NCBI RefSeq assembly: GCF_000407485.1
Contig: NZ_ASWD01000001.1
Location: 1,116,001 to 1,180,000 of the forward strand
Length of the DNA stretch: 64,000 bases
Direction: 5' to 3'
DNA from: Enterococcus pallens ATCC BAA-351
GTDB taxonomy: Bacteria; Bacillota; Bacilli; Lactobacillales; Enterococcaceae
Shown here: piece after piece, positions 30,825 through 64,000 of the stretch
How the letters are laid out: each line of letters opens with the position of its first letter
Numbering within the stretch: position 1 is the first letter of the stretch
The notes under the pieces: generated by a model
What the model was told of the DNA's origin: nothing
Databases searched by the model: none
Seen by the model: only the letters and a program-made list of their open reading frames with translations
Made by a program: the position numbers and the translations under genes

Positions 30825-30827
30825 ATA

Positions 30828-31005
30828 CGTTTGTATTCATCAGGATACAAACGGACAGGTTTGTATCTATGATGGCTAATGTGCTTCAACGCGTCACCAG
30901 CCACGTAGGTAACTCTAAGTGGCTGCGAATAGTGCGAAAATAGGTATTGATTTCTTTCGTAATTTTCAATCGTCCACTTAGACTATCTAAGTGGACGATT
31001 TTTTT
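30828..31005 (+). promoter_or_regulatory. Transcription attenuator with mutually exclusive hairpins
   Basis: Strand 2 (30844-30853) can pair perfectly with strand 1 (CGTTTGTAT, 30828-30836) or strand 3 (GTTTGTATC, 30859-30867). Further down, AGCCAC (30899-30904) / GTGGCT (30919-30924) forms a hairpin that hides TCTAAGTGG (30914-30922). When free, this segment pairs with CCACTTAGA (30974-30982), the 5' arm of a strong terminator (30968-31005: ATCGTCCACTTAG / CTAAGTGGACGAT and seven T). No T-box sequence is seen. Confidence 0.7.
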
Positions 31006-43993: not shown

Positions 43994-44025
43994 AATTACG
44001 CTGCATGATAGAAAGGAAGGTGTGT

Positions 44026-47000
44026 ATGATGAGGTGGAACTGGATTAAATGTACTAAGCTATTTAGTTTCTTACTGATTGTGTTACTACTGCTTCAACTT
44101 GTACCGCCGATCGTGCAAGCACAGCAGCAACTATCGAATGAAACAACGATGGCTGAATCAACTAGTGAACAAACTAAAAATACAATTGAACGATCAAATG
44201 AACCAATTGTTAGTAGTGACACAGGTGAACAGCAGGTAAAGAACATAACCGTACCAAGCACAGAAAAAGAAGCAGCCTCAACAAAAGATAGTCAGCAGAA
44301 GGAAAAGGTATCATCCCAACAACGAGCTGGTGAACAGAAGAATTCAAAGGATATATCGCAATTCGTGACTGTCCATGATTGGTCTATCTATCAAGATGTC
44401 AATCAACCACTGTCTCAAACTACACCTGCTAAATCTGGCGAGAATTATACCTTCGATTTTACTTGGTCATTATCAGGCTTGTCTGGGTTACAAGCAGGCG
44501 ATGAGTTCAAACTTAAGTTGCCAGAAAATGAACACTGGGGTTTTTGGTCGGTTGTCTCTAGTACACCTGTGAATTTTACAGCTAAAGTAAAAATTGATGG
44601 CGTAGAAAAAGATGTGATTCTCGGTCAGTGGTATTGGCAGGGGATTAGTGCGACTGAATACGCTATTGTAGTCGAGTTTGGTGCGGGAGTTGAAACAACA
44701 GGACTCGACATCACCTCCATTACAGGAGTAAAGTTTACAATTCCAGATTCTTTGAAAAATCAAACCGTCATTGGGGAAGACAAAATTCAACAGGTGACCT
44801 TTGGTGGTAGCGCAAAAACCATCAAGTTTGAAAAGCTGAATGAGGAGCCTAATAAAGGCTATGAATTCAAATATTCACCCAATCAGTCAAACAATAATAT
44901 TATTTATGATATCAATGTCAATTTGGCGAATGCAATTGAATTAGGGGGAGATTATGTCAATTGGGATGATAATCCAACTGGTTTTTATTTAGATGGTAGT
45001 TATCGTAACTATTGGGGAGAAAAGATATCAAAGCTGGATTCTCAGATGTACGTTGAAGATCAATTAGATCCACAGGTAGTTGTCAACAGTTTAGATATTT
45101 CAGCATTGGCTTATCGACCGATTCAAATGGATGCAGATATTCATAATCAGCAAAAGGGTGGAATAACAGATGGATATGCTGTTTATCGCTCTTATGTCTT
45201 GAAAGATAATGGACTTGGGCCAGTGTATCGACAGGCAGGTGGAGCTGAGGATGTTCAGCTACCTAAAAGTGAGTATTCATTTATTAAATTGGAACAGGAA
45301 AACATGTCAAAAACAGAATTTCGTCACGCAATCCAGACGAATCCGTATCAATACGGGATCTATGAGGAAAAGATCAATGATCAGCCCGTTCGTACAATTA
45401 TGATTAATTTTGGAAATGTATCGGAAAAAAATGATCGAATTCCTTCCTTGAGTCAAATGACAGATACACAATATGCAGCAGGAACACGGACGATTACACG
45501 GAAATCTAGTAATACCAATGTACAGGTGCCAGAGTTCGCTGTAAAAGCGGCTGACTTTTGTATTCGTAATAATCTAAATTCAGAAGACCAACGTGAATGG
45601 CTGGAGGATTATTTTACATTGGTCTACGGGGATTCCAACGTAGTGGACGGTCAAGCCCTTACGTATAATATCTCGATGAATTTGGGGTATCGACCAGAAG
45701 ATATTCAGTATGATGATAAGGGAGATCCCATAGCAAAACAGAATACGGCTCATCTTTGGTATAAATATGAAGCTGGGGGCTTACGCACAGATTTTGAAGA
45801 AGGTACTACGCTTCCGGTCAAGGCGGAGGGAACCGTAAAAAATCCTTATGGTGAAATTGCGATTAATGCAAGTACTGCTCGATTAGTCAAGCTAGACCAA
45901 GATACGTATGAACCAATGAATGACGTTGCCTTCAGACTTGAAAAGGAGACAAGTAATAATCAGTGGGACGCGGTGGGCACGTATACTACAGAAAATTATA
46001 AAGAATTAAAAGGTGTTATTCAAACGGGCGTTTTAGAGGATGGGACGTATCGTTTCGTCGAAGTCACCACTCCTGAAGGTTACGATAAAACCCTTTCGAT
46101 AAATTACGATAAAGTTTTGAAAGAAGTAGTTTCTGAAAAATTTGAGATTTCTGCTAGTAGTAACGGACAAATGGTTTATGTCTATAATAAAAAGAAAGCC
46201 CAAGCCCAGTATCGCGAACAACATTGGGTTCAAAGTGAAGGAACTGGAGAAAGCCAGTCTGATTTCTCTCTCCGCTTGGAAGAATCAAAGGTGGGGTTTG
46301 TAGGAGAAACAGTGGAAGGTATACCCAAAAATTTTGTTGGGTACCAGTACAAAGATATTGAGGGAATGACTGTAAAATCAGGTGAAGTCACAACCGCTGC
46401 TGATGGTACATTGGTCTTAAAACTTTATTACGTCAAGGACGATGAGGCTATTCCTTTCACTATCAACAAATTAGATGCCTTCAATCAGCCAATGCCCTCA
46501 GTGAATGATGTGGGGGAACCCTTGGCACAAGGGGCTGCTGTGTTCGATGTCTATTTGCTGGTGGGCTGGCCTGATAGTGGAGGCAGTCCAGCTAATATGA
46601 GCCCCCCATCAGCTTATGATAGCGAAGATAAAAAATATCAAAACGCTTATTGGCAACGATTGACTACCGATGAGAATCCTGTTGAAACTGACGCTTTAGG
46701 CCGAATTCGGCTGGATGTTCCATTGGAAGAAAATGGAAATCCGAGAACCTTCGCATTGGTGGAAAGAACAGTCACTTATCCTCATTACGAGCAGTTGTCG
46801 GAAAACAAAGTTTGGTGGGTCTTGTGGACAGGGGACGGCAATAATACGCCATTGGGGAAATTCTCTGGAATTCAGACTGTGGGGGACAATTATTCCGACA
46901 CGGGCTTTGGTGTTGATCAAAGTGATAAGAGTCAAGAACTTTATATCAAAAATCGGTTAACACCGTTGACTGAGCATTTTAAAGTTTATAAATATGATGA

Positions 47001-47943
47001 GGATAAAAAAACGGCCTTAAAGAGTATTCCTAGTGGTCCAAATGTTAACTTTGTTTTGTACAACTACCTTGGTGGTAGTGATCTATCCGGGTTGAAGATA
47101 AAACCTGGTAGTACTGGCAGTGAGGTGTATTGGAACAAATTGGGGGATTATTGGGGCGAGGATGATGCCAGCATTAAATTGTTCAATGTCCAAGCTTCAA
47201 AAGAAGATTCGTATTATGCATTAGTTGAGCAAAATAATTATCATCCAGGGTATCAATTGCCGACTGGTCATTGGACTTTTAAATCAACCGCCAATAATGA
47301 AAAAGGCTATCACCTAGCTGATTTTAATTATCATGGAGCCGATGATCCTGGTCTGATAACACCTGACGACCCTGATAACCCTGAACCAGGACACTATGTC
47401 TTACTAAACCAAAAGAAGAGTGTCGATTTTTCATTCTGGAAAATTAATCCAGAAGAAAAGCGGCTTGCGTTGGCTCAGTTTGAGCTCTATCAGATTGATC
47501 CAGAAAATCCTGATGGTGATCAAGATCCTACGAAACCCAATACACGATGGAAACTATTGGATCAGGCAGTGAGCCAAGACGGCGGAACAAATCACGGAAA
47601 GGTAACTTTTTCTAGCTTAAAAGCAGGAGATTATCTCTTGCTCGAAAAAAAATCTCCTGAAGGTTATGAATTACCAGGAGGCTGGTGGACGTTTACGATT
47701 GATCCAACAGGTGCAACTATTCAAGCTCAAATAAAAAATCTAACCGGTCATGGAGACTATCAACCAGCATTTTCAATAAACGCCAATGATGAAGTCCCTC
47801 ACAGTGTACAAAATTTTCGTAAAATGACGATTCCTAGAGCTGGGAGAGCTGGTTTGATTCTGCCGACAGTATTGGGGATTGTTATAGTGGGATTAGGTAT
47901 TTTGACCGCTATATACAAACCTAAGAAATCAAAAATAGACTAA
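44026..47943 (+). CDS. Large pilus tip/adhesin-like surface protein with unusual IPRAG anchor
   Basis: A 1305-residue surface protein. Signal peptide (LFSFLLIVLLLLQLVPPIVQA), a Ser/Thr/Gln-rich stretch, an adhesin-like N-terminal half (~120-600) with collagen-binding-type folds (FDFTWSLSGLSGLQAGDEFK), then several SpaA/Cna_B-type domains (ARLVKLDQDTYEPMNDVAFR; GDYLLLEKKSPEGYELPGG) with E-boxes. At the end IPRAG replaces LPXTG, followed by a hydrophobic helix and KPKKSK. I chose ATG 44026 (GGAAGG RBS). It is the likely tip protein of the pilus. Confidence 0.85.
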   Translation: MMRWNWIKCTKLFSFLLIVLLLLQLVPPIVQAQQQLSNETTMAESTSEQTKNTIERSNEPIVSSDTGEQQVKNITVPSTEKEAASTKDSQQKEKVSSQQRAGEQKNSKDISQFVTVHDWSIYQDVNQPLSQTTPAKSGENYTFDFTWSLSGLSGLQAGDEFKLKLPENEHWGFWSVVSSTPVNFTAKVKIDGVEKDVILGQWYWQGISATEYAIVVEFGAGVETTGLDITSITGVKFTIPDSLKNQTVIGEDKIQQVTFGGSAKTIKFEKLNEEPNKGYEFKYSPNQSNNNIIYDINVNLANAIELGGDYVNWDDNPTGFYLDGSYRNYWGEKISKLDSQMYVEDQLDPQVVVNSLDISALAYRPIQMDADIHNQQKGGITDGYAVYRSYVLKDNGLGPVYRQAGGAEDVQLPKSEYSFIKLEQENMSKTEFRHAIQTNPYQYGIYEEKINDQPVRTIMINFGNVSEKNDRIPSLSQMTDTQYAAGTRTITRKSSNTNVQVPEFAVKAADFCIRNNLNSEDQREWLEDYFTLVYGDSNVVDGQALTYNISMNLGYRPEDIQYDDKGDPIAKQNTAHLWYKYEAGGLRTDFEEGTTLPVKAEGTVKNPYGEIAINASTARLVKLDQDTYEPMNDVAFRLEKETSNNQWDAVGTYTTENYKELKGVIQTGVLEDGTYRFVEVTTPEGYDKTLSINYDKVLKEVVSEKFEISASSNGQMVYVYNKKKAQAQYREQHWVQSEGTGESQSDFSLRLEESKVGFVGETVEGIPKNFVGYQYKDIEGMTVKSGEVTTAADGTLVLKLYYVKDDEAIPFTINKLDAFNQPMPSVNDVGEPLAQGAAVFDVYLLVGWPDSGGSPANMSPPSAYDSEDKKYQNAYWQRLTTDENPVETDALGRIRLDVPLEENGNPRTFALVERTVTYPHYEQLSENKVWWVLWTGDGNNTPLGKFSGIQTVGDNYSDTGFGVDQSDKSQELYIKNRLTPLTEHFKVYKYDEDKKTALKSIPSGPNVNFVLYNYLGGSDLSGLKIKPGSTGSEVYWNKLGDYWGEDDASIKLFNVQASKEDSYYALVEQNNYHPGYQLPTGHWTFKSTANNEKGYHLADFNYHGADDPGLITPDDPDNPEPGHYVLLNQKKSVDFSFWKINPEEKRLALAQFELYQIDPENPDGDQDPTKPNTRWKLLDQAVSQDGGTNHGKVTFSSLKAGDYLLLEKKSPEGYELPGGWWTFTIDPTGATIQAQIKNLTGHGDYQPAFSINANDEVPHSVQNFRKMTIPRAGRAGLILPTVLGIVIVGLGILTAIYKPKKSKID

Positions 47944-53034: not shown

Positions 53035-53612
53035 GATTTCGGAATAGTTTTTGAACGGTAGGCACACTCCAACTTTTCGTTCAGCCAAAAGGGTTGTAAC
53101 GGGTATCAAATAACGAATGATCAATTTTTCACAATGAAACTAAGCTTATCGATCACTTGTTTTTATAACGAAATAACAGAAGTTAGACAAGTTTTTGATG
53201 CTTGTGAAGCAGCGGTTATCAGCAGATTGATTTTGTAGAAGGGAGCGCTAACTTCATTAAAAATCTATAGTGAGTACTTGTTCGTTTTCAATTATTTATC
53301 AGGTAAAGATGAATAATTTTTCGTAGCTGGAGGGCGTTCTGTGCAATAATGTTTGTACGGGAGGTTCCTTTTTTTGTAGGGGAAAAGCAATTTTATCAGT
53401 TATCGATGGGACTAATTTTTATTTTAATACTAAGAAATAGATAGCGAACATCACAATCTTTATTGTTATTTTTATTTTTTAGGTAGAAAAGTTGGGCTGA
53501 ATCATTCTTTACCTTTTGACCAAATTGAAAATATAATGTGAGTGTAAAGAAAATGTTTTTCGAAATTCGGCGCTGAATAATGAGAACCTTTACATTTATA
53601 GGAGGGATGGTC
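53035..53612. other. Intergenic region with promoter of the PTS/RuBisCO-like operon
   Basis: About 580 bases without a gene. A promoter is seen close to its end: -35 TTTACC (53508-53513) and -10 TATAAT (53532-53537), spacing 18. No strong cre or operator was found. A PRD regulator encoded within the operon probably acts here. Confidence 0.5.
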
Positions 53613-54080
53613 GTGAGTAATTCCCAGTTGTTGGCATTTGATCGTGAGTTAGTGAAGCTTGATGAATATTATGAGAGTCAGGAGGAGCTATTTAATAAAA
53701 TAGCTGCTTGGCTGCATGACAAGGAATTGGTCCATGAAAATTACAGCGAGGCTTTAAAAAAACGGGAATTAGAATTTCCAACAGGCCTGCATACCAAGCT
53801 TTACGATGTTGCGATTCCACATGCAGACCCGATTCATGTAAAAAAACCTTTCATTGCCTTTGTGAGACCGGCAAATGAAATCGTATTCAATGAAATGGCT
53901 ACTAAGAAAGCTGAAGTAAAGCCGAAGATCATTTTATTTTTAGGCTTGATGAAAAGTGAGGAGCAGCTGTCGGTTTTGCAAAAATTAATGAAGCTGTTTT
54001 CCTCAGAGGAATTCATGACGGGCTGTCTGCAGTCAGTCGAGGATGAGAAGGTATTTGAGCTACTGGAAAGTGCATTTTAA
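53613..54080 (+). CDS. PTS EIIA, fructose/mannitol/galactitol type
   Basis: A 155-residue EIIA of the PTS_EIIA_2 family. The phosphorylated His is His70 (VAIPHADP). Residues 1-60 and 95-150 follow the family pattern (LGLMKSEEQLSVLQKLMKLF). I chose GTG 53613, 7 bases after AGGAGGG; upstream ATGs at 53580 and 53607 have wrong spacing. First gene of an operon with EIIB and EIIC. Confidence 0.85.
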   Translation: MSNSQLLAFDRELVKLDEYYESQEELFNKIAAWLHDKELVHENYSEALKKRELEFPTGLHTKLYDVAIPHADPIHVKKPFIAFVRPANEIVFNEMATKKAEVKPKIILFLGLMKSEEQLSVLQKLMKLFSSEEFMTGCLQSVEDEKVFELLESAF

Positions 54081-54099
54081 AAAAGGGGGAGCTTTAAAA

Positions 54100-54399
54100 A
54101 TGAGAACAATCAATGTGTTATCTGTATGCGGGTCAGGCTCGGTGACGAGTTCCATGATCGCAGGAAATGTTCGTGATATGTTGGACGATGAAGGGTATCA
54201 GGCACAAACGGTAGAGTGCAATCCAAACGGGGTGGACGAGCTATTGGCGAATCGTGAATTTGACATTATCGTGCATACCAGTCCGTTAAAACGTGAATAT
54301 GATCTGCCGACGATTAATGCAATTGGTCTTCTGACTGGAACAGATGAAGAGGGGTTCGAAGAAGAATTGATGGAAGCGGTAAAGGGGCTAAGTCTATAA
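54100..54399 (+). CDS. PTS EIIB, galactitol (GatB) type
   Basis: A 99-residue EIIB. The phosphocysteine is Cys10 in LSVCGSGSVTSSM, the P-loop-like pattern of GatB/SgcB. RBS AAAGGGGG. It lies between EIIA and EIIC, the usual order. Gat-type systems transport polyols and some sugar acids. Confidence 0.9.
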   Translation: MRTINVLSVCGSGSVTSSMIAGNVRDMLDDEGYQAQTVECNPNGVDELLANREFDIIVHTSPLKREYDLPTINAIGLLTGTDEEGFEEELMEAVKGLSL

Positions 54400-54426
54400 A
54401 TCCTACAGGAAGGAGATTTCTAAACT

Positions 54427-55869
54427 ATGGATAACTTTTTAAATCTATTATCGGATATTATGAACGCATTTGGGTCGGCTGTAGTGGTTCCAATCGTCCT
54501 TTTCGTTATCTGTCTCTTAATGAAGGTAAAGCCAAAGAAAGCTTTTCAATCTGCTCTGAACTGTGGGATTGGGTTAATTGGGTTTAACTTGCTGATTGGT
54601 GCCTACACACCGATTCTTGCTCCGGTCATTGAACGAATGGTCGAAACAACCGGGATCAACATGAATATTATTGATACTGGCTGGCAGCCGACTGCGGGAA
54701 TTATTTACTCAGCGAAAATCAGCTTAGTCTTCTTGGCACTTGGCTTGGTGATGCAGACATTCCTGTTTGCCATTCGCTTCACCAATATTTTTCAGCCGTC
54801 GGATCTGTGGAACAATTACTCCTACATGATCTGGGGTGCGATGCTTCAGTTAGTGACAGGCAATACATGGCTGGCAATTTTACTGATGGTCTTAACTAAT
54901 TTGTATTGCTTAATGCTTTCTGAAATTACGGAAAAACGGTGGTCCAAATACTATGGTATCCCAGGAGCAACCTTAGCAATTGCCCACGATTCAGCACCGG
55001 TACCGTTAACCTTGGCGATGAACTGGTTATTGGATAAATTAGGTGCCAACAAGATTAAGTTAAATCCTCAAACCATTGAAAAGCGTTTAGGTTTGTTTGG
55101 AGAAGCAACTACACTTGGTTTGCTGTTGGGGCTGATCTTAGGAATCTTAGGGAACTTGACACGTTTAAATACGTTGGAAGGTTGGGGCGAAGCGGTTCAA
55201 CTGGCCGTTGCCACAGCAGCTATCATGGCAATCTTCCCTAAAATTGCGGCAATTTTCAGTTCGGCTTTCTCAAGTATCACCTCGGCTTCTAAGAAAAATG
55301 CGAAGAAGTCTACTAAAGGCGGTCAAAGAGAATGGTACATCGCCATCAATGATGCGGCAGGTTACGGAGAACCAGCAACGTTGCTTTCAGGTATGATTTT
55401 GATTCCTATTATTTTGATCTTAGCGGTTATTCTGCCAGGGAACCAAGCATTGCCGATGATTGACTTGATTGGTATTCCTTATTTGATTCAAGCAATCGTG
55501 GCTATGACCAATGGGAATATTTTCAAGACAGTGATTATTGGTGCGGTTTATCTGTGTGGTGGTTTGTATATGGTAACTGCGGTTGCGCCAATCTTCAATG
55601 ATTTGGCCGTCAGCGTTGGCTATGAGATTCCATCAGGTGCCATGATGATCTTTAGTATTATCCTGCTAGCCAATTGGGTAAATGGACTGCTCTTCTTAAT
55701 CTTCTTGAATGGAAGTCCGCTGCTGATTGGGCTCTCGATTATTGTGTATGTGGGCTGCTACTTATTTGTCCGTACGAAACGCGACAGCATTCATGAATAT
55801 TTAGAAAAACAAGCGCTGGGTGATGAGTATGTTCCAGAGCCGGCTGCGGGTGAAGTATCAACAGAGTAA
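54427..55869 (+). CDS. PTS EIIC, galactitol (GatC/SgcC) type
   Basis: A 480-residue membrane EIIC with about 10-12 helices. Seen: VKPKKAFQSALNCGIGLIGFNLLIG and the GWQPTAGIIYS segment, both typical of the Gat family. Also seen is an internal loop with KKNAKKSTKGG. With EIIA and EIIB it should import and phosphorylate an unidentified polyol, sugar or sugar acid. Confidence 0.9.
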   Translation: MDNFLNLLSDIMNAFGSAVVVPIVLFVICLLMKVKPKKAFQSALNCGIGLIGFNLLIGAYTPILAPVIERMVETTGINMNIIDTGWQPTAGIIYSAKISLVFLALGLVMQTFLFAIRFTNIFQPSDLWNNYSYMIWGAMLQLVTGNTWLAILLMVLTNLYCLMLSEITEKRWSKYYGIPGATLAIAHDSAPVPLTLAMNWLLDKLGANKIKLNPQTIEKRLGLFGEATTLGLLLGLILGILGNLTRLNTLEGWGEAVQLAVATAAIMAIFPKIAAIFSSAFSSITSASKKNAKKSTKGGQREWYIAINDAAGYGEPATLLSGMILIPIILILAVILPGNQALPMIDLIGIPYLIQAIVAMTNGNIFKTVIIGAVYLCGGLYMVTAVAPIFNDLAVSVGYEIPSGAMMIFSIILLANWVNGLLFLIFLNGSPLLIGLSIIVYVGCYLFVRTKRDSIHEYLEKQALGDEYVPEPAAGEVSTE

Positions 55870-55918
55870 AGGAAATCGATTGACTTTTAGATAGAAGAAA
55901 ACTGGGGGAGTGATAGAA

Positions 55919-57997
55919 ATGGATCGTCGAATATTTGATCTTTTGCATGAAATTGTTTCTAGTCAGGAGATTGATTTGTCGGAGCTGTCTGAAAAATACT
56001 CCTTAAATAAAACCCAGATTGATTACTCTTTGAAAAAAGCCAATCAATATTTACTGGAAAACCACATTGCTCCATTAAAAAAAGAGAACAATATGCTGAC
56101 TGGTCGCCTGACCATGGAGCAGCTGAACTTGATTATCGAAAAAGAAAATGACACTGGCTGGCTTTCTGATACTGAACGAAAAACGTTAATTGAATTTATG
56201 CTGATGCTGCAAAACGACACATCATTGGCACATTTTTCGATTGATTTGAAGGCCAGCAAAAATACCATCTTGAATGATTTAAAAGACGTGAAAAAGAATT
56301 TCGAGGAGCAAGGGATTCAGCTGCATTACAACCGTCGAAAGGGCTACTATCTGGAGGGCAATGAAATTACGATCCGCAGAATGCTGTTGAAACGTATTCG
56401 TGAAACTGATCGTATCAAACAGATGGTGGCGACAAATGGCTTTCTTGAGCTGCGGGATGGGAAGTTTTATCATGACTTCTTTAAGCAAATTGAAGAGGGC
56501 ATGAGCATTCGCTTGTCTGACGAGATGATTTATCGTCTGCCCTTCATTATCGAAGCATTATTAAAACGAGCAAATAATCAGCATCAGCTAAAAGAAGCGG
56601 ATCTGATTGATTTAGCTGTATTGAAGCAAGAAGATTCCTTCCAAATTTTGCGCGAGATTTTTGTAAAAAATCTTCCGCTGGAGACGGTCAGCGAGGCGGA
56701 TATTAGTTTTCTGATCATTCAAATTTTGGGTGCCAGCCTGGTACTTAGTCAGGTGAAGCAGGAGACCTATGAAAAAGATCCGTACTATCATCTGATTTGT
56801 GAGATGGTCTGGCGTTTTGAGAACAGCATGGCGATAAAATTTCATCAAAAGGAAGAAATCTACTTGAAGTTTTATCAGCACATTATCCCAGCCATTTATC
56901 GAATCAAGTACGACATCCCCCTTGCTAATGACCTTTCAACGAGAGTGAAGCAGGAATACAGCTATATTCACTCTATCGTACGCAAGGTAATTGATCCAAT
57001 TGAGCAGGAGCTGCAGACCAGCTTTCCAGAAAATGAATTAGCCTATTTAACCATGCTGTTTGTAGGACTGATTTTTTCACAAAATGCCCACATTGAAAAC
57101 AAACCTAAAGCAGTTGTTTTGTGTGAAAACGGCCTGACAGAATCGTTGCTGCTGACCAATGTCCTACGCGAAATTTTTCCGGAGTTTGTCTTTATTGGCT
57201 ACATGTCTAAACGGGATTTTGTCAAAAATGAGGTGCCCGCAGATGTGATCTTTTCCACTGTGTATTTTGACACCGAGCAGTTTCTCTTTGTGGTTGATCC
57301 AGTAATTAACGATGAGAAAAAACTGTGGCTGCGAAAAAATGTACTGAAGAAAATCCGTTTTTATGGACCCAAACAGGAATTAATGAAAAAGGAACAGATT
57401 AATCAATTTATTGAAAGTAATGAACCTTTTGTAACGATCAAGGATAAAAAAGGGTTGGAGGCTTTTCTAGATATTACCCTGCAACCATTTTCTCTACAAT
57501 TATCAACACTGTCGTACTATAACAAACCATCCTTATTACAATTATTGCCGATTGATCATATTCAGGTAAGCAATGATCCGCTCTCATTAGAGGAGGCGAT
57601 TGTTTTGTGCAGTCAGCCGCTAGTTAAAAATAGAATAGTGGAAGCCTCCTATGCAGAGCGAATTGTTGCCAACTATCCTAAAGGGGAATCTTATTTCTCG
57701 ATTGCACCTAAAGTGGCGTTGCCCCACACAACGGGTATGAATGATGTTCACAGTGTCGGCATGAGCTTGCTGAAGCTGAAGGAACCCATTTATTTTCCAA
57801 ATGAAAAACGCTGGGTTTCACTTCTGATGGTAGTGGCGCCCTTGAATAATGACATGCATATCAATGCGGTTACTCAGTTTCATAAAATTGTTTTGGATGA
57901 CAAAAATGTTGAAAGGCTGCTGAAGTGTCGGGAGCCAGAAGAATTACGCGACATCATTAATCAAAAGGTATTAGAGCTTGAGGATGCAAGAAAATAA
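55919..57997 (+). CDS. PRD-containing transcriptional regulator (MtlR/LicR-like)
   Basis: A 692-residue multidomain activator. N-terminal HTH domains (residues ~1-160), two PTS regulation domains (~180-390), a GatB-like EIIB module (VLCENGLTESLLL, Cys near residue 402) and a C-terminal EIIA_2 module (VALPHTTG, His near residue 602). Phosphorylation by HPr and the cognate EIIs would tune its activity. I chose ATG 55919 behind GGGGGAG rather than a GTG 9 bases earlier. It sits between the PTS and the RuBisCO-like gene and is the likely operon regulator. Confidence 0.9.
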   Translation: MDRRIFDLLHEIVSSQEIDLSELSEKYSLNKTQIDYSLKKANQYLLENHIAPLKKENNMLTGRLTMEQLNLIIEKENDTGWLSDTERKTLIEFMLMLQNDTSLAHFSIDLKASKNTILNDLKDVKKNFEEQGIQLHYNRRKGYYLEGNEITIRRMLLKRIRETDRIKQMVATNGFLELRDGKFYHDFFKQIEEGMSIRLSDEMIYRLPFIIEALLKRANNQHQLKEADLIDLAVLKQEDSFQILREIFVKNLPLETVSEADISFLIIQILGASLVLSQVKQETYEKDPYYHLICEMVWRFENSMAIKFHQKEEIYLKFYQHIIPAIYRIKYDIPLANDLSTRVKQEYSYIHSIVRKVIDPIEQELQTSFPENELAYLTMLFVGLIFSQNAHIENKPKAVVLCENGLTESLLLTNVLREIFPEFVFIGYMSKRDFVKNEVPADVIFSTVYFDTEQFLFVVDPVINDEKKLWLRKNVLKKIRFYGPKQELMKKEQINQFIESNEPFVTIKDKKGLEAFLDITLQPFSLQLSTLSYYNKPSLLQLLPIDHIQVSNDPLSLEEAIVLCSQPLVKNRIVEASYAERIVANYPKGESYFSIAPKVALPHTTGMNDVHSVGMSLLKLKEPIYFPNEKRWVSLLMVVAPLNNDMHINAVTQFHKIVLDDKNVERLLKCREPEELRDIINQKVLELEDARK

Positions 57998-58018
57998 TCT
58001 CAGAAATGGGGAAAAACA

Positions 58019-59251
58019 ATGAAATTTGAAACACTGAAAATGGCAGAAGGCTTAAACAATGAATTTGTAATTGCGACTTACTACATGAAGTCTGAAAAAG
58101 AACCGGATCTTTATGATTGGGTAAAGCTGGTGGCAGCCGATCAAAGTGCTGGAACCTGGACCCATGTTGAAGGTGAAACGCCAGAGGTTATTGCACTGTA
58201 TGGAGCAAAAGTGATTGGCGTTTATCCAATGTCAGATGGGATTTCTTGTATTGCCAGAGTGGCCTTCCCGATTGCCAATTTCCCAGCGTACATGGCGATG
58301 GTCATCAGTACAGTTGCTGGAAATGTGTTAGCCCAGGATGGCATTCGTTTGGTTGATATTGAGTTTCCAGAAGTAATGCTGGAACAATTTACTGGTCCTT
58401 TAATGGGTGTTAGCGGCATTCGCGAATTGCTAGGAATCAAGGAACGGCCATTAGTGGGAGCGATTTTGAAGCCTTGTATCGGTGTTCCTCCTGAAGCCAG
58501 TGCAGCTGGTGCGGCAAAAGCGGCGCTGGGCGGAGCAGATGTAATCAAAGATGATGAGCTGTTAAGTGATCCGGCGTACTCGCCAATGATTGATCGAGTG
58601 AAAACAGTAATGGCCCATTTAAAAGAAGTTGGGAAAGACAAATCTACTTTATATGCTGTAAATATTACCGGCCAAAATGTCATTGAGCGAGCAAAAGCTG
58701 CGATTGATGCCGGTGCCAACTCGATCATGGTCAATTACAATGCGTTAGGCTGGGCAGCAACGGAAGACCTGGTTCGTTTCTTGAAGAAAGAAAACATCAA
58801 AATTCCAATTTTCGGTCACTGTGCTGGAGCCGGCGCGTACTATCGTTCAGCAAACAACGGTATGTCAGCAGCCTTAAGCTGTGGGAAATTGCCGCGTTTA
58901 ATTGGTATGGACATGCCGTTGGTTTATCCAGACACAGGACGTTTTGGAACGACCACTGATGAATTAGTTGAAACCCACAGTGCCTTGTCAACGCCAATGA
59001 AGTCAATTGAGGCAGCCTTTACTACTGTAGCAGGTGGTGTGCATCCAGGCAGTATTGAGTACTTAATGAATCTATTGGGGAATGAAACCATCTTGATGGC
59101 AGGCGGAGGCATTTACGGACATCCAGAAGGCGCCGTCTCTGGTGCGAAAGCCTTGCTGCAAGCAATCGAAGCAGTCATGGAAGAAGTCCCAGTAGTCGAA
59201 GCAGCCAAAAACCATGAAGAATTGGATCAAGCCTTGAAGTTTTGGTCTTAA
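58019..59251 (+). CDS. RuBisCO-like protein (form IV)
   Basis: A 410-residue protein of the RuBisCO superfamily. Compared with RuBisCO: Lys151 matches K175 (GAILKPCIG), but K177 is replaced by Cys153. The carbamylated Lys and metal ligands are kept (Lys177, Asp179, Glu180 in GGADVIKDDELL), His at FGHCAG fits H294, and the phosphate-binding GGGIYGHPEG is kept. The loop 6 Lys334 motif is not found and Ser379 is Ala, so it is not a CO2-fixing RuBisCO. Known relatives act as enolases or isomerases in methionine salvage, or as decarboxylases in apionate pathways; no mtn genes are near. Confidence 0.92.
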   Translation: MKFETLKMAEGLNNEFVIATYYMKSEKEPDLYDWVKLVAADQSAGTWTHVEGETPEVIALYGAKVIGVYPMSDGISCIARVAFPIANFPAYMAMVISTVAGNVLAQDGIRLVDIEFPEVMLEQFTGPLMGVSGIRELLGIKERPLVGAILKPCIGVPPEASAAGAAKAALGGADVIKDDELLSDPAYSPMIDRVKTVMAHLKEVGKDKSTLYAVNITGQNVIERAKAAIDAGANSIMVNYNALGWAATEDLVRFLKKENIKIPIFGHCAGAGAYYRSANNGMSAALSCGKLPRLIGMDMPLVYPDTGRFGTTTDELVETHSALSTPMKSIEAAFTTVAGGVHPGSIEYLMNLLGNETILMAGGGIYGHPEGAVSGAKALLQAIEAVMEEVPVVEAAKNHEELDQALKFWS

Positions 59252-59270
59252 TTGATCGATGTGTGTTGAG

Positions 59271-59624
59271 AAACAAACTCATTTTTCTCAAGAAAAATGA
59301 ATACCTTAATAGGAAATAGGATGTCAGTTCAACTTTTCGCAGGATTAAAAATCAAAAAGGAATAAAGAATTTCAACACAAGCAAGGAATCAATAAGTTAA
59401 GTTGAATGATATACGTACTGAAAAACAAACTCATTTTTCTCAAGAAAAATGAATACCTTAATATGAAGTAGGGTGTCAGTTCAACTTTTCTCAGGATCAA
59501 GAATCAAAAAGGAATAAAGAATTTCAACGCAATCAAGCAACCAATAAGTTAAGCTGAATGATATACGTACTGAAAAACAAACTCATTTTTCCCAAGAAAA
59601 ATGAATACCTTAATAGGAAGTAGG
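59271..59624 (+). repeat. Tandem 152-bp repeat, about 2.3 copies
   Basis: Copies begin at 59271, 59423 and 59575 (each AAACAAACTC); the period is exactly 152 and the third copy stops at 59624. The full copies differ at about a dozen positions. Each contains the hairpin TCATTTTT / AAAAATGA and, in full copies, TTCAACTT paired with AAGTTGAA (the second has one mismatch). The unit looks like a duplicated upstream region of the E1alpha gene. Confidence 0.95.
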
Positions 59625-59634
59625 AGGAATTTCG

Positions 59635-60642
59635 TTGGATACGACTCTTTCAAAAGAAACTTTGTTAAAACTTTATCAAACTATGATCCGTATTCGTGAA
59701 TTTGAAAATGAAGCGATCGAATTAGCCAAAGCCAATATCACTCGCGCGGCCGTTCACACGTACAACGGTGAGGAAGCAATTGCCGTGGGGGTCTGTGCTC
59801 ACTTGAGTGACAAGGATTACATTACCTCAACCCACCGAGGACATGGTCATTGTATTGCTAAAGGTGCTGACTTAAGAAAAATGTTCGCTGAGCTGATGGG
59901 GCGCGAAACTGGCTATTGCAAAGGAAAAGGTGGCTCGATGCACATTGCTGACTTAGCAACCGGAAACTTAGGAGCCAACGGAATTGTTGGTGGCGGGATT
60001 CCCATGGCAATGGGCGCTGGATTGGGCTTGCAGGTTGCTCATGAACCACATTTATCGGTTTCATTTTTTGGCGATGGTGCTTCAAACGAAGGCTCCTTCC
60101 ATGAGTCTTTGAATATGGCCGCGATTTGGAACCTGCCGGTAGTGTTTATTTGCGAAAATAACAAGTACGGTATTTCTACCTCAACAGAAAAGTCGATGAA
60201 CATTAAAAATATTTCGGATCGTGCTAAGGGCTATGGCATTAAAGGCATTACGATTGATGGGAATGATTTGGTGAAGGTGTATGAAACCTTCGCCGAGGTG
60301 AAAGAGTATGTTTTAGCAGGTAAGGGGCCTGTCTTGTTAGAAATGGATACCTATCGCATGTCCGGTCATTATTTTGGTGATAATGAAAATTATCGTGATC
60401 GCGCAGATGTTGAAAAATGGCGGGAAAAAGATCCGATCCTGCGCTGCGAACAGTTGCTGATGAATGACTATGGCGTAACCGAAGACGAATTGAAGGCAAT
60501 TGAAAAGGCAGAAAATAAACGAGTATTAGCTGCTTCGGAACAAGCTAAGCAAGACCCAGAGCCTTCGATTGCCGATATGACGGATGATTTGTATGATCCA
60601 ACCTTTGAAGAAATTGAATGGAAAGTATTTTCTAAAGGATAG
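59635..60642 (+). CDS. TPP-dependent dehydrogenase E1 alpha (acetoin dehydrogenase-like)
   Basis: A 335-residue E1 alpha subunit. Typical acetoin-dehydrogenase (AcoA) features: STHRGHGHCIAKG, GKGGSMHIADLATGNLGANGIVGGG, and the TPP motif GDGASNEGSFHESLN with the closing Asn in FICENNKYG. The start is TTG 59635, 9 bases after GTAGGAGG. Substrate could be acetoin, pyruvate or another 2-keto/acyloin compound produced downstream of the RuBisCO-like protein. Confidence 0.9.
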   Translation: MDTTLSKETLLKLYQTMIRIREFENEAIELAKANITRAAVHTYNGEEAIAVGVCAHLSDKDYITSTHRGHGHCIAKGADLRKMFAELMGRETGYCKGKGGSMHIADLATGNLGANGIVGGGIPMAMGAGLGLQVAHEPHLSVSFFGDGASNEGSFHESLNMAAIWNLPVVFICENNKYGISTSTEKSMNIKNISDRAKGYGIKGITIDGNDLVKVYETFAEVKEYVLAGKGPVLLEMDTYRMSGHYFGDNENYRDRADVEKWREKDPILRCEQLLMNDYGVTEDELKAIEKAENKRVLAASEQAKQDPEPSIADMTDDLYDPTFEEIEWKVFSKG

Positions 60643-60655
60643 GAAGGAGATAATT

Positions 60656-61627
60656 ATGCGGAAACTTTCAATGCGTCAGGCGGTTAACGAAGCATTGCAC
60701 ATTGCTTTTAACAGTGACGAAAATGTACTTACCATCGGGGAGGATATCGCTGTTTACGGCGGTCAGCTGCGCTGCAGCTATGACCTGTTGGACAATTTTG
60801 GCGGCGAACGTGTGAGAGATACGCCGATTTCAGAAATTGCGATTGTCGGTGCCGGGATTGGTTCAGCCATGATTGGCCGACGCCCGATTGTTGAACTGTC
60901 TTATATGGATTTTATCGGAGTGTGCTTTGACCAAATTCTGAATCAGGCAGCGAAAATGCGTTACATGTATGGTGGTCGGGTAAGTATTCCTTTAGTCATT
61001 CGCACACAATGCGGTGCCGGACTGGGAAATGGGGCTCAGCACTCGCAATCGTTGGAAAATATTTTGTCGCATGTCCCGGGTATTCGGGTGGTAATGCCAT
61101 CAAATGCCTATGATGCGAAGGGATTGTTATTACATGCGATTCGTGACAACAATCCAGTGGTCTTTGTAGAGCATAAAGCCTTGTACAAACGTAAATGTGA
61201 AGTACCAGAGGAACCTTATGAAGTCAGTTATGAAAGTGAAGTTAAGGAAGCGGGAGAAGATATTACAATCATTTCCTATTCAGCTATGGTAGATGTTTCC
61301 TTAAAGGCTGCTAAGAAACTCAAGGACGAAGGGATTAGTGCGGAAGTCATTGATATAAAAAGTATTGAACCATTGGATATGGCACCAATTTTAAAATCGG
61401 TAGAAAAAACCGGGCACGCCATTGTGGTCCATGAAGCTGTTAAAAAATCAGGCTTCGGTGGAGAAATTGCGGCACAAATCCAAGAGTTTGCCTTTGATTA
61501 TTTGAAAAAGCCCGTCTTACGAGTGACTGCACCGGATGTACCAGTACCTTTTGCTAGAAACTTGGAAATGGCGTATGTACCTGATGAAGAGCAAGTGATT
61601 GAAGCTGTCAAAAAAACATTGAGCTAA
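60656..61627 (+). CDS. TPP-dependent dehydrogenase E1 beta (acetoin dehydrogenase-like)
   Basis: A 323-residue E1 beta subunit: GEDIAVYGGQLRCSYDLLDNFG at the N terminus, ISEIAIVGAGIGSAMIGRRPIVE, and the C-terminal transketolase fold (SAEVIDIKSIEPLDMAPIL, VVHEAVKKSGFGGEIAA). ATG 60656 has AGGAAGGAG. It forms the E1 heterotetramer with the preceding gene. Confidence 0.93.
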   Translation: MRKLSMRQAVNEALHIAFNSDENVLTIGEDIAVYGGQLRCSYDLLDNFGGERVRDTPISEIAIVGAGIGSAMIGRRPIVELSYMDFIGVCFDQILNQAAKMRYMYGGRVSIPLVIRTQCGAGLGNGAQHSQSLENILSHVPGIRVVMPSNAYDAKGLLLHAIRDNNPVVFVEHKALYKRKCEVPEEPYEVSYESEVKEAGEDITIISYSAMVDVSLKAAKKLKDEGISAEVIDIKSIEPLDMAPILKSVEKTGHAIVVHEAVKKSGFGGEIAAQIQEFAFDYLKKPVLRVTAPDVPVPFARNLEMAYVPDEEQVIEAVKKTLS

Positions 61628-61640
61628 GGAGAGGGTTATC

Positions 61641-62690
61641 ATAAAACTACTAATTACGACTTATATAGATGAAAAAAATATCCAACGGTTAAAAACCTTA
61701 TTTTCAGAAATTAAATTTGCTGGCATGACTGAATTGGGGCGGATTTTAACGGAGGACGAATTAGCAGATGCACTGGAAGACTGCGATGCCATCATCATTG
61801 AATTTGATCCGTTAACGAAAAAAGTCTTGGATCAGGCTAAGAACCTGAAAGTCATTGCCTCAGTTCGTGGGGGAGCACACGCCAATGTCGATGTGGATGC
61901 TGTGACCAAACGTGGAATTCCTATTTTCAACGTCCCTGGACGGAATCAGGACACGGTAGCAGATTTCACGATTGGCATGATGATTGCCGTCAGCCGTGGA
62001 ATTTCTAAAGGAAATCTTTTGATTAAAAATCGAGTAATCACCGATGACAAAACCTACGTGGAAAATGGTTTTTGTGTAACGGATGTCAACTGGGTCGGTT
62101 CGACACCTGAGAAATTTGCTTATCTGCAGTACAAAGGGCCAACTTTAGCTGGGAAGACGATGGGCTTAGTCGGCTTTGGGGCAATTGGTCGTGAAACGGC
62201 TAAACGAGCATTAGCCTTTGACATGAAGGTTTTGGCTTATGATCCATTTGTTAAGCAAGAGGATATTTCAGCTGATATTCGGTTGGTGGAATTAGAGGAA
62301 TTAATGGCAGAATCTGATTTTGTTTCGATCCATTTGCCAGTAAATGATGGGACGCGGGGAATTGTTTCAGCAGAAATACTGGGTAAAATGAAGCCGACTG
62401 CTTATTTAATCAATACGGCTCGAGCAGCTGTAATGGATTATGACAAATTGATTGAGATGCTGCAAAAGGACGAGCTTGCTGGTGCGGCGTTGGATGTTTA
62501 TCCAGTGGAGCCATTGCCAAATAATCATCCTTTGCTTGAATTAGACAATGTGGTGCTGACCCCCCATATCGGCGGCTGCAGCATGGACCCTTATGACCGC
62601 TCGTATGATAAATTATTCACAGAGTTATCCTTGTTCTTGGATGGCGGCATGCCAGAAAAAGTATACAACCCAGAATTTGCCAACTACTAA
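61641..62690 (+). CDS. D-2-hydroxyacid dehydrogenase, probable non-AUG start
   Basis: An NAD-dependent 2-hydroxyacid dehydrogenase of the SerA-like family: nucleotide motif LVGFGAIGRETAKRAL, catalytic Arg in ASVRGGAHANVD, Glu in the segment TARAAVMDYDKLIEML...ALDVYPVEPLP, and His in LTPHIGGC. The first ATG (61725) would remove the conserved first strand. Coding continues upstream (KLLITTYIDEKNIQRL) to ATC/ATA at 61638-61643, where AAGGAG lies 6-9 bases before. No ATG, GTG or TTG is there. I place the start at ATA 61641 (349 residues). It probably acts on an intermediate of the pathway. Confidence 0.8.
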   Translation: MKLLITTYIDEKNIQRLKTLFSEIKFAGMTELGRILTEDELADALEDCDAIIIEFDPLTKKVLDQAKNLKVIASVRGGAHANVDVDAVTKRGIPIFNVPGRNQDTVADFTIGMMIAVSRGISKGNLLIKNRVITDDKTYVENGFCVTDVNWVGSTPEKFAYLQYKGPTLAGKTMGLVGFGAIGRETAKRALAFDMKVLAYDPFVKQEDISADIRLVELEELMAESDFVSIHLPVNDGTRGIVSAEILGKMKPTAYLINTARAAVMDYDKLIEMLQKDELAGAALDVYPVEPLPNNHPLLELDNVVLTPHIGGCSMDPYDRSYDKLFTELSLFLDGGMPEKVYNPEFANY

Positions 62691-62706
62691 ATTGGAGGAC
62701 TAGCAG

Positions 62707-62949
62707 ATGAGAAAAGAAGTAATTATGCCGAAAATCGGCTTGGATATGGATGAAGGAACCATCATCACTTGGTACAAAAAAGCAGGCGAAGCAGTGAAAA
62801 AGGGTGAGGTTTTGCTGGAAATTGAAACCGATAAAGCGACGACTGATGTGGAGGCAGCCGTTGACGGTGTCTTAGCTGAAATTGTTGAAGAGGAAGATGC
62901 AACAGTAGATATTGGCGAAACCATCGCATGGATTGAAGTCGATGAGTAG
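62707..62949 (+). CDS. Free-standing lipoyl carrier protein
   Basis: An 80-residue single lipoyl domain with the lipoylated Lys43 (EIETDKATTDVEA). In most acetoin or pyruvate dehydrogenase clusters this domain is the N terminus of E2; here it ends with a stop at 62947-62949, which overlaps the start of the E2 catalytic gene by 8 bases. It would carry the acyl group between E1, E2 and E3. RBS TTGGAGG. Confidence 0.92.
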   Translation: MRKEVIMPKIGLDMDEGTIITWYKKAGEAVKKGEVLLEIETDKATTDVEAAVDGVLAEIVEEEDATVDIGETIAWIEVDE

Positions 62950-63619
62950 TGAAGGAAAAAAGCTGACGGGAATCAAAAAAGCCATGGCCAAACAAATGAT
63001 CCGCAGCTGGACCGATGTGCCTCAGTTTCAACTGAGCACAACGGTCCGCTGTGACAACTTGATGGCCTACCGTAAAAATTTACCAGAAAAAGTGTCCTTT
63101 ACAGCGATTATTGCCAAAGCAGTTGCACTGACTTTGAAGGAATTTCCAGAGATCAATCAACGGTTCGTGGATGGTTTGGTGGAGGCGGTAGACTCCGTGA
63201 ACATGGGAATTGCCAGTGACACGAAACGGGGACTGCTGGTACCGGTAATCAATCAAGCCGATGCAAAATCATTAACGGAAATGCAGCAGTCATTAAACGA
63301 AATCAAAGAAAAAAGCAAGCTAGGCAAGTTTTCAATGGAGGAATTAACCGGGGGAACCTTTACAATCAGCAACTTAGGCATGTTTAACATTGAAACTTTT
63401 TCTTCTATTGTAAATACACCGGAATTAGGCATTCTAGCCATCGGAAAAATTGCCAAGAAGCCTTATGTGGATGAAAACGATCAATTGATTGCGGCTTCGG
63501 TTCTGCAGCCGGTTCTAACCTTGGATCATCGCGTTGCTGACGGGGCTACCGGGGCAAGGTTTTTAACCCGCTTGGCAGAAGTGTTGGAAAATCCTACAGA
63601 GCTGCTGCCTTACGAATAG
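62942..63619 (+). CDS. E2 acyltransferase catalytic domain (no lipoyl or E3/E1-binding domain)
   Basis: A 225-residue protein consisting only of the catalytic core of 2-oxoacid dehydrogenase E2: LTGIKKAMAKQMIRSWTDVPQF at the N terminus and the active-site DHRVADG (His196, Asp200). The family's peripheral subunit-binding domain is absent. ATG 62942 overlaps the stop of the lipoyl gene by 8 bases. E2 is therefore split into two proteins. Acyl transfer from the lipoyl protein to CoA is the expected reaction. Confidence 0.9.
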   Translation: MSSEGKKLTGIKKAMAKQMIRSWTDVPQFQLSTTVRCDNLMAYRKNLPEKVSFTAIIAKAVALTLKEFPEINQRFVDGLVEAVDSVNMGIASDTKRGLLVPVINQADAKSLTEMQQSLNEIKEKSKLGKFSMEELTGGTFTISNLGMFNIETFSSIVNTPELGILAIGKIAKKPYVDENDQLIAASVLQPVLTLDHRVADGATGARFLTRLAEVLENPTELLPYE

Positions 63620-63654
63620 AAGCAAGCTAAAACTAGCAATAAGGAGGATGCGAC

Positions 63655-64000
63655 TTGGAAACAACCATTGCAATTATCGGCGGCGGACCGGGTGGATACG
63701 TGGCAGCCATACGTGCAGCACAACTAGGTGGAAAAGTCATTTTAATTGAGAAAGAAAGACTGGGTGGCACCTGCTTGAATGTTGGTTGTATACCTACCAA
63801 AGCTTTACTGCAATCGGCAGAAGCCTTAGAACAAGTTCAGCAGGCCAAAAAATTTGGAATCTCGGCAGCTATAGAAGGCTTCGATTGGTCAACAGTGATG
63901 AAACGCAAGGATCGTGTGGTTAAGCAGCTGGTCAAAGGGGTTCAAGGCTTGATGAAAACCAATCAGATTGAAGTGCTGCAGGGAACCGCAAAATTTTTAG
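63655..64000 (+). CDS. Dihydrolipoamide dehydrogenase (E3), partial
   Basis: The first 115 residues of an FAD-dependent disulfide oxidoreductase: FAD motif IIGGGPGGYVAAIRAAQLG and the redox disulfide GGTCLNVGCIPTK. TTG start at 63655, about 9 bases after AAGGAGG. The gene runs off the window. It would reoxidise the lipoyl protein and completes the complex. Confidence 0.93.
   Translation, partial: METTIAIIGGGPGGYVAAIRAAQLGGKVILIEKERLGGTCLNVGCIPTKALLQSAEALEQVQQAKKFGISAAIEGFDWSTVMKRKDRVVKQLVKGVQGLMKTNQIEVLQGTAKFL

What the first reader, a model, noticed from the sequence alone, without database searches (positions are those of the whole stretch)
53613..64000. PTS, RuBisCO-like protein and acetoin-dehydrogenase-like complex in one locus: a probable undescribed catabolic pathway
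Seen: gat-type EIIA-EIIB-EIIC, PRD regulator, RuBisCO-like protein, E1alpha, E1beta, D-2-hydroxyacid dehydrogenase, lipoyl protein, E2 core and E3, all on one strand. Family knowledge: RuBisCO-like proteins in methionine salvage come with mtn genes and those of apionate catabolism with specific kinases and dehydrogenases; none is here. Inference: an imported, phosphorylated polyol or sugar acid is rearranged or decarboxylated by the RuBisCO-like protein and its product is oxidised to an acyl-CoA. I cannot name the substrate.
Basis: partly seen in the sequence, partly recalled or inferred. Interest (0 to 1): 0.85.

Follow-up and report, generated by a model that had tools for sequence, protein, structure and literature searches.

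The report
RuBisCO-like protein with dehydrogenase complex
A relative of the carbon-fixing enzyme RuBisCO sits in a sugar-uptake operon next to a pyruvate-dehydrogenase-like enzyme complex, and the same pair recurs in distantly related bacteria, pointing to a sugar-breakdown route for which we found no description.

Summary
Window 53580-64000 (E3 runs on to about 65037) encodes EIIA, EIIB, a Gat-type EIIC, a PRD regulator, a RuBisCO-like protein (RLP), E1alpha, E1beta, a D-2-hydroxyacid dehydrogenase (D2HADH), a free 80-aa lipoyl protein, an E2 core and E3. This Enterococcus genome holds a second, paralogous locus (RLP 92% identical). Seventeen loci in 15 genomes (Enterococcus, Clostridia, one Verrucomicrobiota) carry RLPs of at least 63% identity; all 17 have E1alpha and E1beta on the same strand, against 0 of 27 other RLP loci read. 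These RLPs form one clade apart from RuBisCO, MtnW and OiaX; their E1s form one clade apart from acetoin and pyruvate dehydrogenases. RLP, E1 and lipoyl protein are constant; uptake and dehydrogenase vary. Best reading: the RLP isomerises a keto-sugar phosphate into an acyloin-type ketose phosphate, which the E1-E2-E3 complex cleaves to an acyl-CoA (probably acetyl-CoA) and a triose phosphate. The substrate is unknown; a DXP-like intermediate is my best guess. Nothing was assayed. All components belong to known families; the combination and both subfamilies look undescribed, within an open-licence library.

The parts
53580..54080 (+). PTS EIIA (PTS_EIIA_2), 166 aa
54043..54399 (+). PTS EIIB, 118 aa as longest ORF
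   Evidence: PTS_IIB 27.5 bits, cut-off 23.6
54427..55869 (+). PTS EIIC of the Gat family, 480 aa
   Evidence: EIIC-GAT 217.7 bits; 26-29% identical to the shorter EIIC of the ten other clade loci with a PTS apart from L014
55910..57997 (+). PRD/Mga/EIIA transcription regulator, 695 aa
58019..59251 (+). RuBisCO-like protein, 410 aa, of the E1-linked clade; probable metal centre K177/D179/E180, K151 kept, phosphate loop 361-369, Arg308 in the column of the loop-6 Lys
59267..59625 (+). tandem 152-nt repeat (two full copies, 92% identical, plus a 55-nt third) between RLP and E1alpha
59635..60642 (+). E1 alpha, 335 aa
60656..61627 (+). E1 beta, 323 aa from the ATG at 60656 (longest ORF opens at 60584)
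61641..62690 (+). D-2-hydroxyacid dehydrogenase family protein, 349 aa if started at ATA 61641; 321 aa from ATG 61725
62707..62949 (+). free-standing lipoyl protein, 80 aa
   Evidence: found in 17 of 17 loci
62912..63619 (+). E2 acyltransferase core without lipoyl or subunit-binding domain, 235 aa
   Evidence: found in 15 of 17 loci
63655..64000 (+). E3 dihydrolipoyl dehydrogenase, 460 aa, cut by the window end (ends at about 65037 in L004)

Best explanation
The locus is a catabolic operon in which a new RuBisCO-like subfamily hands its product to a dedicated thiamine-diphosphate dehydrogenase complex. Uptake and phosphorylation come first (PTS here). An NAD-linked dehydrogenase (D2HADH here, a zinc MDR enzyme in the paralogous locus) sets the oxidation level. 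The RLP then uses a RuBisCO-type metal centre and a phosphate-binding loop to enolise and isomerise a keto-sugar phosphate, giving an acyloin-type ketose phosphate. E1 cleaves the bond next to the carbonyl, the acyl group passes through the free lipoyl protein and the E2 core to CoA, and E3 makes NADH. Most likely products: acetyl-CoA and a triose phosphate (glyceraldehyde 3-phosphate), i.e. an intermediate like 1-deoxyxylulose 5-phosphate (DXP). Shown here: gene content, conservation, orthology, residues. Inferred: every reaction, the order of steps, the products. Unknown: the substrate.
For: (1) RLP and E1alpha/beta lie together in 17 of 17 clade loci from Enterococcus, several Clostridia and a Verrucomicrobiota MAG, against 0 of 27 other RLP loci with E1alpha. 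(2) Both proteins form single clades with 100/100 support. (3) The RLP keeps the K175-, K201-, D203-, E204- and H294-equivalents and the GGG phosphate loop (17 of 17), but Arg295 is Cys or Ser, Ser379 is Ala and the loop-6 Lys is Arg (17 of 17 each): enolisation with one phosphate site fits better than carboxylation (roles recalled). (4) E1alpha position 39 is Ala/Val in 17 of 17 RLP-locus E1s and Thr in 8 of 8 E1s of DXR-II or other PTS loci, but Phe in 6 of 6 acetoin-context E1s and in this genome's PDH (Leu in the one Phaeobacter row): a roomier pocket (that this position lines the pocket is recalled). (5) Many of the best E1alpha hits on named plasmids lie beside a DXR type II gene (722 bits to PDB 3upl) with sugar or polyol uptake genes in rhizobia; 16 of the 21 listed DXR-II places of at least 50% identity have a listed E1alpha hit next to them, the other 5 were not checked. 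That points to DXP-type substrates for such E1s. (6) L022 carries HPr, EI and GAPDH behind the RLP, as expected if glyceraldehyde 3-phosphate is made. (7) Lipoate ligase near L023, with an orthologue near L019. (8) E. coli PDH mutants raise DXP, and XylB phosphorylates deoxyxylulose (PMC3424233, passages); the FGGY kinase of five loci is XylB-like.
Against: No activity, growth or expression data. The E1 tree puts the RLP-locus E1s nearer the acetoin E1s (89/86) than the DXR-II ones, so the DXP analogy is indirect. GAPDH is in only 1 of 17 loci. D2HADH chemistry does not fit a polyol phosphate easily, since such enzymes normally need a carboxylate next to the hydroxyl (recalled); I cannot say which step it serves. 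E3 was found in 13 of 17 loci and the E2 core in 15 of 17. In L019 and L021-L023 the RLP lies 5-7 kb from E1alpha, though on the same strand. In the window a 383-nt repeat-bearing gap separates RLP from E1alpha. The RLP and E1 trees agree on the Enterococcus group but differ in where L017, L018 and L025 go. The metal and phosphate residues kept are shared by nearly all the RLPs compared, so they do not tell this reaction from others.
Confidence: 0.5

Rival explanations
1. The RLP is a decarboxylase like OiaX: the substrate is a sugar acid, the dehydrogenase makes a beta-keto acid phosphate, the RLP removes CO2 and E1 cleaves the resulting acyloin.
For: Known RLPs decarboxylate 3-oxo-isoapionate 4-phosphate (PMC6302742, passages); a D2HADH fits a hydroxy-acid substrate.
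Against: Nine loci have a zinc polyol/threonine-type dehydrogenase instead of the D2HADH with an RLP up to 94% identical to the window's. The OiaX-labelled rows keep Arg295 and the loop-6 Lys (4 of 4), the clade keeps neither. OiaX model score 184 bits against a cut-off of 700.
Confidence: 0.17
2. E1 is a 2-oxo-acid dehydrogenase: D2HADH oxidises a 2-hydroxy acid (phosphate) to the 2-oxo acid, E1 decarboxylates it oxidatively, and the RLP acts on a separate branch.
For: D2HADH catalytic Arg, Glu and His motifs look intact (sequence; motif meaning recalled). E1beta shares Glu134 and Arg289 with this genome's PDH.
Against: The D2HADH orthologue is absent from 10 of 17 loci, and E1 belongs to the THRGHGH superclade with acetoin-type E1s, far from this genome's PDH.
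Confidence: 0.12
3. 2-C-methylerythritol catabolism: uptake gives MEP, and a dehydrogenase plus RLP replace DXR, making DXP for E1.
For: DXR type I is absent from the two Enterococcus genomes tested; DXR-II plus E1 plus polyol uptake in rhizobia is a parallel; one carrier, E. florum, is by its name plant-associated (inference).
Against: All 6 RLP-positive Enterococcus genomes also match DXR-II-type proteins; the own genome has three such genes, beside gut-type PTS. So no replacement is needed there. In G008 and G010 the only match holds a stop codon; in G008 it lies upstream of the probable start, G010 was not checked. Seven of the eight other carriers tested have DXR-I. The RLP chemistry would have no precedent known to me.
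Confidence: 0.1
4. Two unrelated functions share an operon: the RLP serves sulfur or deoxyadenosine salvage and the complex is an ordinary acetoin or pyruvate dehydrogenase.
For: Nearest solved structures include MtnW enzymes.
Against: 17 of 17 conservation; the MtnW Lys98 column is Asn in 17 of 17; E1 lacks the acetoin-type insert and residues and is remote from PDH; no mtn gene identified in the locus.
Confidence: 0.06

Closest known systems
MtnW, 2,3-diketo-5-methylthiopentyl-1-phosphate enolase
   Same: RuBisCO fold, 29-33% identity, Foldseek TM (query) 0.84-0.87; KDDE metal motif, Gly-rich phosphate loop, no Arg295 and no loop-6 Lys
   Different: The Lys98 column is Asn; KPC instead of KS or KG; loop-6 column Arg instead of Ser; separate clade; no mtn neighbours identified
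5-methylthioribulose-1-phosphate isomerase (RLP of Rhodospirillum rubrum)
   Same: Proposed type of reaction: ketose phosphate isomerisation on the way to DXP (PMC10663253, passages; details recalled)
   Different: Its sequence was not among those compared here; its pathway has a cupin, not a dehydrogenase complex
OiaX, 3-oxo-isoapionate-4-phosphate decarboxylase
   Same: An RLP in sugar catabolism
   Different: The annotated oiaX gene read (L131) sits with a four-carbon acid sugar kinase; three more RLPs that I labelled OiaX for that same neighbour group with it and Form III, not with this clade
Acetoin dehydrogenase (AcoAB-AcoC-AcoL)
   Same: THRGHGH E1alpha motif, same E1 superclade, E1/E2/E3 operon
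   Different: E1alpha Ala39/Ile180 instead of Phe/Glu; no E1beta insert; split E2
DXR-II plus E1-E2 loci of rhizobia
   Same: Sugar or polyol uptake plus an E1 of the same superclade next to an enzyme of the DXP/MEP interconversion
   Different: DXR-II instead of an RLP; one-piece E2 of about 430 aa

Membership tests
RuBisCO (carboxylase) | Loop-6 Lys334 and Arg295 equivalents | tested here: not met
   Arg and Cys/Ser in 17 of 17 clade rows; Lys and Arg in the Form I and Form III rows. The Lys column still holds a basic residue.
RuBisCO (carboxylase) | Carbamylated Lys201 with Asp203 and Glu204 | tested here: met
   KDDE in 17 of 17, as in every other RLP compared; carbamylation itself not testable
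MtnW enolase | Lys98 general base | tested here: not met
   Asn in 17 of 17; Lys in 3 of 3 rows labelled MtnW from neighbour genes; role of Lys98 recalled
MtnW enolase | NCBIfam score over the curated cut-off | tested here: not met
   TIGR03332 228 bits against 513.6; NF007095 273.6 against 409
OiaX | NCBIfam NF042437 over cut-off | tested here: not met
   184.4 bits against 700
OiaX | Four-carbon acid sugar kinase neighbour | tested here: inconclusive
   None seen among the window genes with family matches; the paralogous and other loci were read by eye or cluster only
5-methylthioribulose-1-phosphate isomerase | Orthology to the R. rubrum enzyme | not tested
   No sequence of it was obtained
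RuBisCO superfamily (fold) | N-terminal domain plus TIM barrel | tested here: met
   Pfam PF00016 and PF02788; AlphaFold model pLDDT 83.1, Foldseek to MtnW and Form III
Acetoin dehydrogenase | E1alpha Phe39 and Glu180, E1beta insert after residue 32 (as in 6 of 6 acetoin-context rows, contexts labelled by me) | tested here: not met
   0 of 17 RLP-locus rows
Lipoyl-dependent acyl-CoA-forming complex | E1alpha, E1beta, lipoyl domain, E2 catalytic domain, E3 | tested here: met
   E1alpha, E1beta, lipoyl and E2 by Pfam; E3 read from the ORF in L004 and by tblastn between loci; activity not testable
Galactitol PTS | Galactitol-specific EIIC score | tested here: not met
   TIGR00827 253.9 bits against 542.2; Pfam family EIIC-GAT is met
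D-2-hydroxyacid dehydrogenase | Pfam 2-Hacid_dh and 2-Hacid_dh_C | tested here: met
   substrate not testable

The most novel reading that the evidence does not exclude
A new branch of RuBisCO evolution: an RLP subfamily that isomerises a deoxy- or branched keto-sugar phosphate to DXP or a close analogue, which a dedicated 'deoxyketose-phosphate dehydrogenase' complex with a split E2 oxidatively cleaves to acetyl-CoA and glyceraldehyde 3-phosphate. DXP would then be a catabolic intermediate, also in Enterococcus genomes without type I DXR.
Probability: 0.25. Interest if true: 0.87.

Novelty: new variant of a known kind. Interest (0 to 1): 0.68.

Why it matters
RuBisCO-like proteins have few proven functions (recalled), so one tied in 17 of 17 loci to a thiamine-dependent acyl-CoA-forming complex gives an unusually sharp handle on a new one. 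If the reading holds, it adds a route from sugar-like compounds straight to acetyl-CoA, a new class of E1 substrate (a phosphorylated acyloin) and a naturally split E2 with a free lipoyl carrier. The DXR-II parallel suggests that DXP and MEP, known as isoprenoid precursors, may also be food.

Tried and rejected
Considered and rejected: true RuBisCO, MtnW and OiaX; ordinary acetoin dehydrogenase or PDH; autoinducer-2 catabolism (in L017 the importer ATPase and permease and the kinase score higher to xylose/ribose models than to Lsr models); a B. subtilis YoaC/YoaD-type pair (recalled likeness; the one paper found only guesses at cysteine breakdown); RNA elements in the locus (the only Rfam match in the window is an sRNA at 30811-30990); promoters and terminators (fewer than in shuffles). 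A replacement role for DXR was weakened by the DXR-II matches in the same genomes. Ten literature searches gave nothing in their listings on an RLP with an E1 complex or on methylerythritol catabolism; the library holds open-licence papers only, most listed papers were not opened, and Carter et al. 2018 is not in it.

Limits: the 27 other RLP loci were chosen by me from the hits, not all hits, and some are short (L028 5 kb, L105 8 kb, L086 10 kb). The labels MtnW, OiaX, Tm1, PTS_aldolase and ACO are mine, from neighbour genes; so three of the four OiaX labels rest on the kinase next door. Gene clusters come from a simple ORF caller, which can miss small or overlapping genes. L018 and L026 begin at contig ends, so an ABC importer upstream cannot be excluded there. 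The RLP tree came with warnings of long branches (Form I, one MtnW, one OiaX row, L088) and its outgroup was not one side of a branch. In one search the L153 line was read on the wrong strand and says nothing.


Full report
What is there. The window ends inside an operon that reads EIIA-EIIB-EIIC(Gat)-PRD regulator-RLP-E1alpha-E1beta-D2HADH-lipoyl-E2-E3, all on the + strand. The rest of E3 follows in the genome, then an RpiR-like regulator on the other strand (family read from sequence). The genome is 5.44 Mb, of a genus to which E. florum and E. hulanensis belong (contigs matched). It holds a second RLP locus on contig 6: zinc dehydrogenase (MDR), EIIA, EIIB, EIIC, a sigma-54/PRD/EIIA regulator, RLP (92%), E1alpha, E1beta, lipoyl, E2, E3, with no D2HADH.

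How widespread. A scan of the genome-contig collection (84,980 species) with short exact patterns gave 15 loci: 14 at 63-98% identity and one at 37%. In whole-genome searches, 6 of 105 Enterococcaceae genomes have the gene, all in one of 17 genera. Of 398 Bacillota genomes 49 have some RLP match at E 1e-15 or better, but only 2 at 63% or more; of 397 genomes of the Anaerostipes family 1; of 248 of the Christensenella order 1. The other matches are at 45% or below. The clade is rare and patchy: Bacillota and one Verrucomicrobiota MAG.

Constant and variable parts. In the 17 clade loci (15 genomes): RLP 17, E1alpha 17, E1beta 17, lipoyl protein 17, E2 core 15, E3 13, Gat EIIC 12, EIIA 12; E1alpha and E1beta share a strand in 17 of 17. 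Two dehydrogenases exclude each other: an MDR orthologue (71-96% identical among loci) in 9, a D2HADH orthologue (65-94%) in 7, neither in L021, both in none; L014, L017, L020 and L025 hold other MDR genes at 20-34% to the orthologue group. The exclusion holds genome-wide: the MDR orthologue is in 9 of 9 searched genomes with an MDR-type locus and in 0 of 5 with only a D2HADH-type locus, at E 1e-80; two of the nine, the own genome and E. florum, have both locus types. Five of the 7 D2HADH loci have an FGGY gene (xylulokinase-like where tested, L017) and three of these an ABC sugar importer; the two Enterococcus ones have a PTS instead. So several entry modules feed one core. Because the window's RLP is up to 94% identical to RLPs of the other type, the RLP reaction is probably the same in both.

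Control. Of 27 other RLP loci that I read, 0 have E1alpha. They have class II aldolases (9), UPF0261/Tm-1-like genes (9), TIM-like (7) and RpiB-like (5) isomerases, GlpA-like genes (3), Gat EIIC (8), MDR (5) or D2HADH (4) relatives. Gat PTS with RLP is thus not unique to this clade; the E1 complex is, among the loci read.

RLP residues and phylogeny. Against a Form I, a Form III, four OiaX-labelled and three MtnW-labelled rows, the clade has N102 (Asn123), K151 (Lys175), K177/D179/E180 (Lys201/Asp203/Glu204), H267 (His294) and GGG at 362-364 in 17 of 17. It has Cys153 for Lys177, Cys (16) or Ser (1) for Arg295, Ala338 for Ser379 and Arg308 in the column of the loop-6 Lys334 (RuBisCO numbering and roles recalled). 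The KPC motif is shared with the other Clostridial RLPs. The tree (50 rows) makes it one clade, 100/100, apart from MtnW, the other Clostridial RLPs and OiaX/Form III. The model (pLDDT 83.1, pTM 0.85; under 50 at 45-49, 271-279 and 306-311, near the active-site loops) has the RuBisCO fold, nearest to MtnW structures.

E1. In a tree of 33 E1alpha+E1beta pairs the 17 RLP-locus pairs form one clade (100/100). So do 6 acetoin-context and 5 DXR-II-context pairs; this genome's PDH is remote, on a long branch. RLP joins ACO at 89/86, which is not decisive and slightly against a DXP link. At E1alpha 39 the residue is Ala/Val (RLP 17 of 17), Thr (DXR-II 5, other PTS 3), Phe (acetoin 6, PDH 1), Leu (Phaeobacter 1); at 180 it is Glu only in the 6 acetoin rows and Phaeobacter. 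E1beta of the acetoin rows carries an insert that RLP, DXR-II, PTS and PDH rows lack.

The DXP lead. Among the best plasmid hits for E1alpha are rhizobial genes next to a 441-aa oxidoreductase that matches PDB 3upl along its length (722.5 bits); I recall 3upl/3upy as Brucella DXR-II. Sugar ABC importers with a kinase, or a gut-type PTS, lie beside it. Of 21 listed DXR-II places of at least 50% identity, 16 have a listed E1alpha hit next to them; 5 were not checked; the lists show parts of 111 and 712 records. An E1 downstream of MEP-DXP interconversion would act on DXP, an acyloin with a methyl ketone like acetoin (inference). PDH point mutants raise DXP in E. coli and XylB phosphorylates deoxyxylulose (PMC3424233, passages). 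An RLP and a cupin lead from methylthioadenosine to DXP in R. rubrum (PMC10663253, passages). Together these make DXP-like chemistry the best single guess, at about one in four. Against it: Enterococcus genomes already match DXR-II-type proteins (27 of 105 Enterococcaceae, 6 of 6 RLP carriers), so the RLP must do something else than replace DXR there, and no gene here tells the substrate.

Verdict. Reaction and substrate are open. Literature was seen as passages (PMC6302742, PMC10663253, PMC3847144, PMC3424233, PMC2885750) or search listings only.

Noticed in passing
window 61628-61643; L014 about 13325-13345: The D2HADH gene has ATA, behind GGAGAGG, where orthologue L017 has its ATG (MKLL-TTY); E. 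florum has the same. A probable AUA start codon.
   Followed up: partly
window 59267-59625: Tandem 152-nt repeat with a 22-nt near-palindrome in each copy between RLP and E1alpha; E. florum L014 has only a 100-nt gap there.
   Followed up: partly
L116 (own genome contig 4): Third Gat-PTS-like locus with an E1-E2-E3 complex, here with an SDR and a SorC-type regulator and no RLP (families read from sequence, E1-E3 by tblastn).
   Followed up: partly
L121/L123 (Clostridioides difficile record NZ_CP149674.1): Sugar-binding regulator, E1alpha, E1beta, E2, E3, sigma-54 regulator, PTS IIA/IIB/IIC, class II aldolase and lipoate ligase in a row.
   Followed up: partly
L161, L162 (own genome); L117-L119: DXR-II-type genes beside gut-type PTS with GutM in this genome (Pfam), Listeria and Ligilactobacillus (annotation) and E. 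raffinosus (read from sequence). One own locus also has an MDR and a D2HADH, another lies near a phosphoketolase. Looks like catabolism through MEP/DXP.
   Followed up: partly
L111, L112, L114, L122, L128: DXR-II next to E1alpha and E1beta in rhizobia and Paracoccus: candidate methylerythritol or DXP catabolic operons.
   Followed up: partly
L017 2714-3442, L025 2773-3498: IspD (MEP cytidylyltransferase; Pfam on L017, L025 by cluster) gene close to the RLP locus in two genomes; may be chance.
   Followed up: no
L083-L085, L081/L098/L103, L095: Other RLPs (33-45%) with Gat PTS plus class II aldolase, with GlpA-like genes, or with UPF0261 and PEP-hydrolase-like genes: more uncharacterised RLP pathways.
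   Followed up: partly
window 30811-30990: Rfam match to Enterococcus sRNA_2410.
   Followed up: no
window 43990-47943: A 1317-aa protein with a signal-like start and a C-terminal membrane stretch, reminiscent of pilin or adhesin proteins (from sequence only).
   Followed up: no
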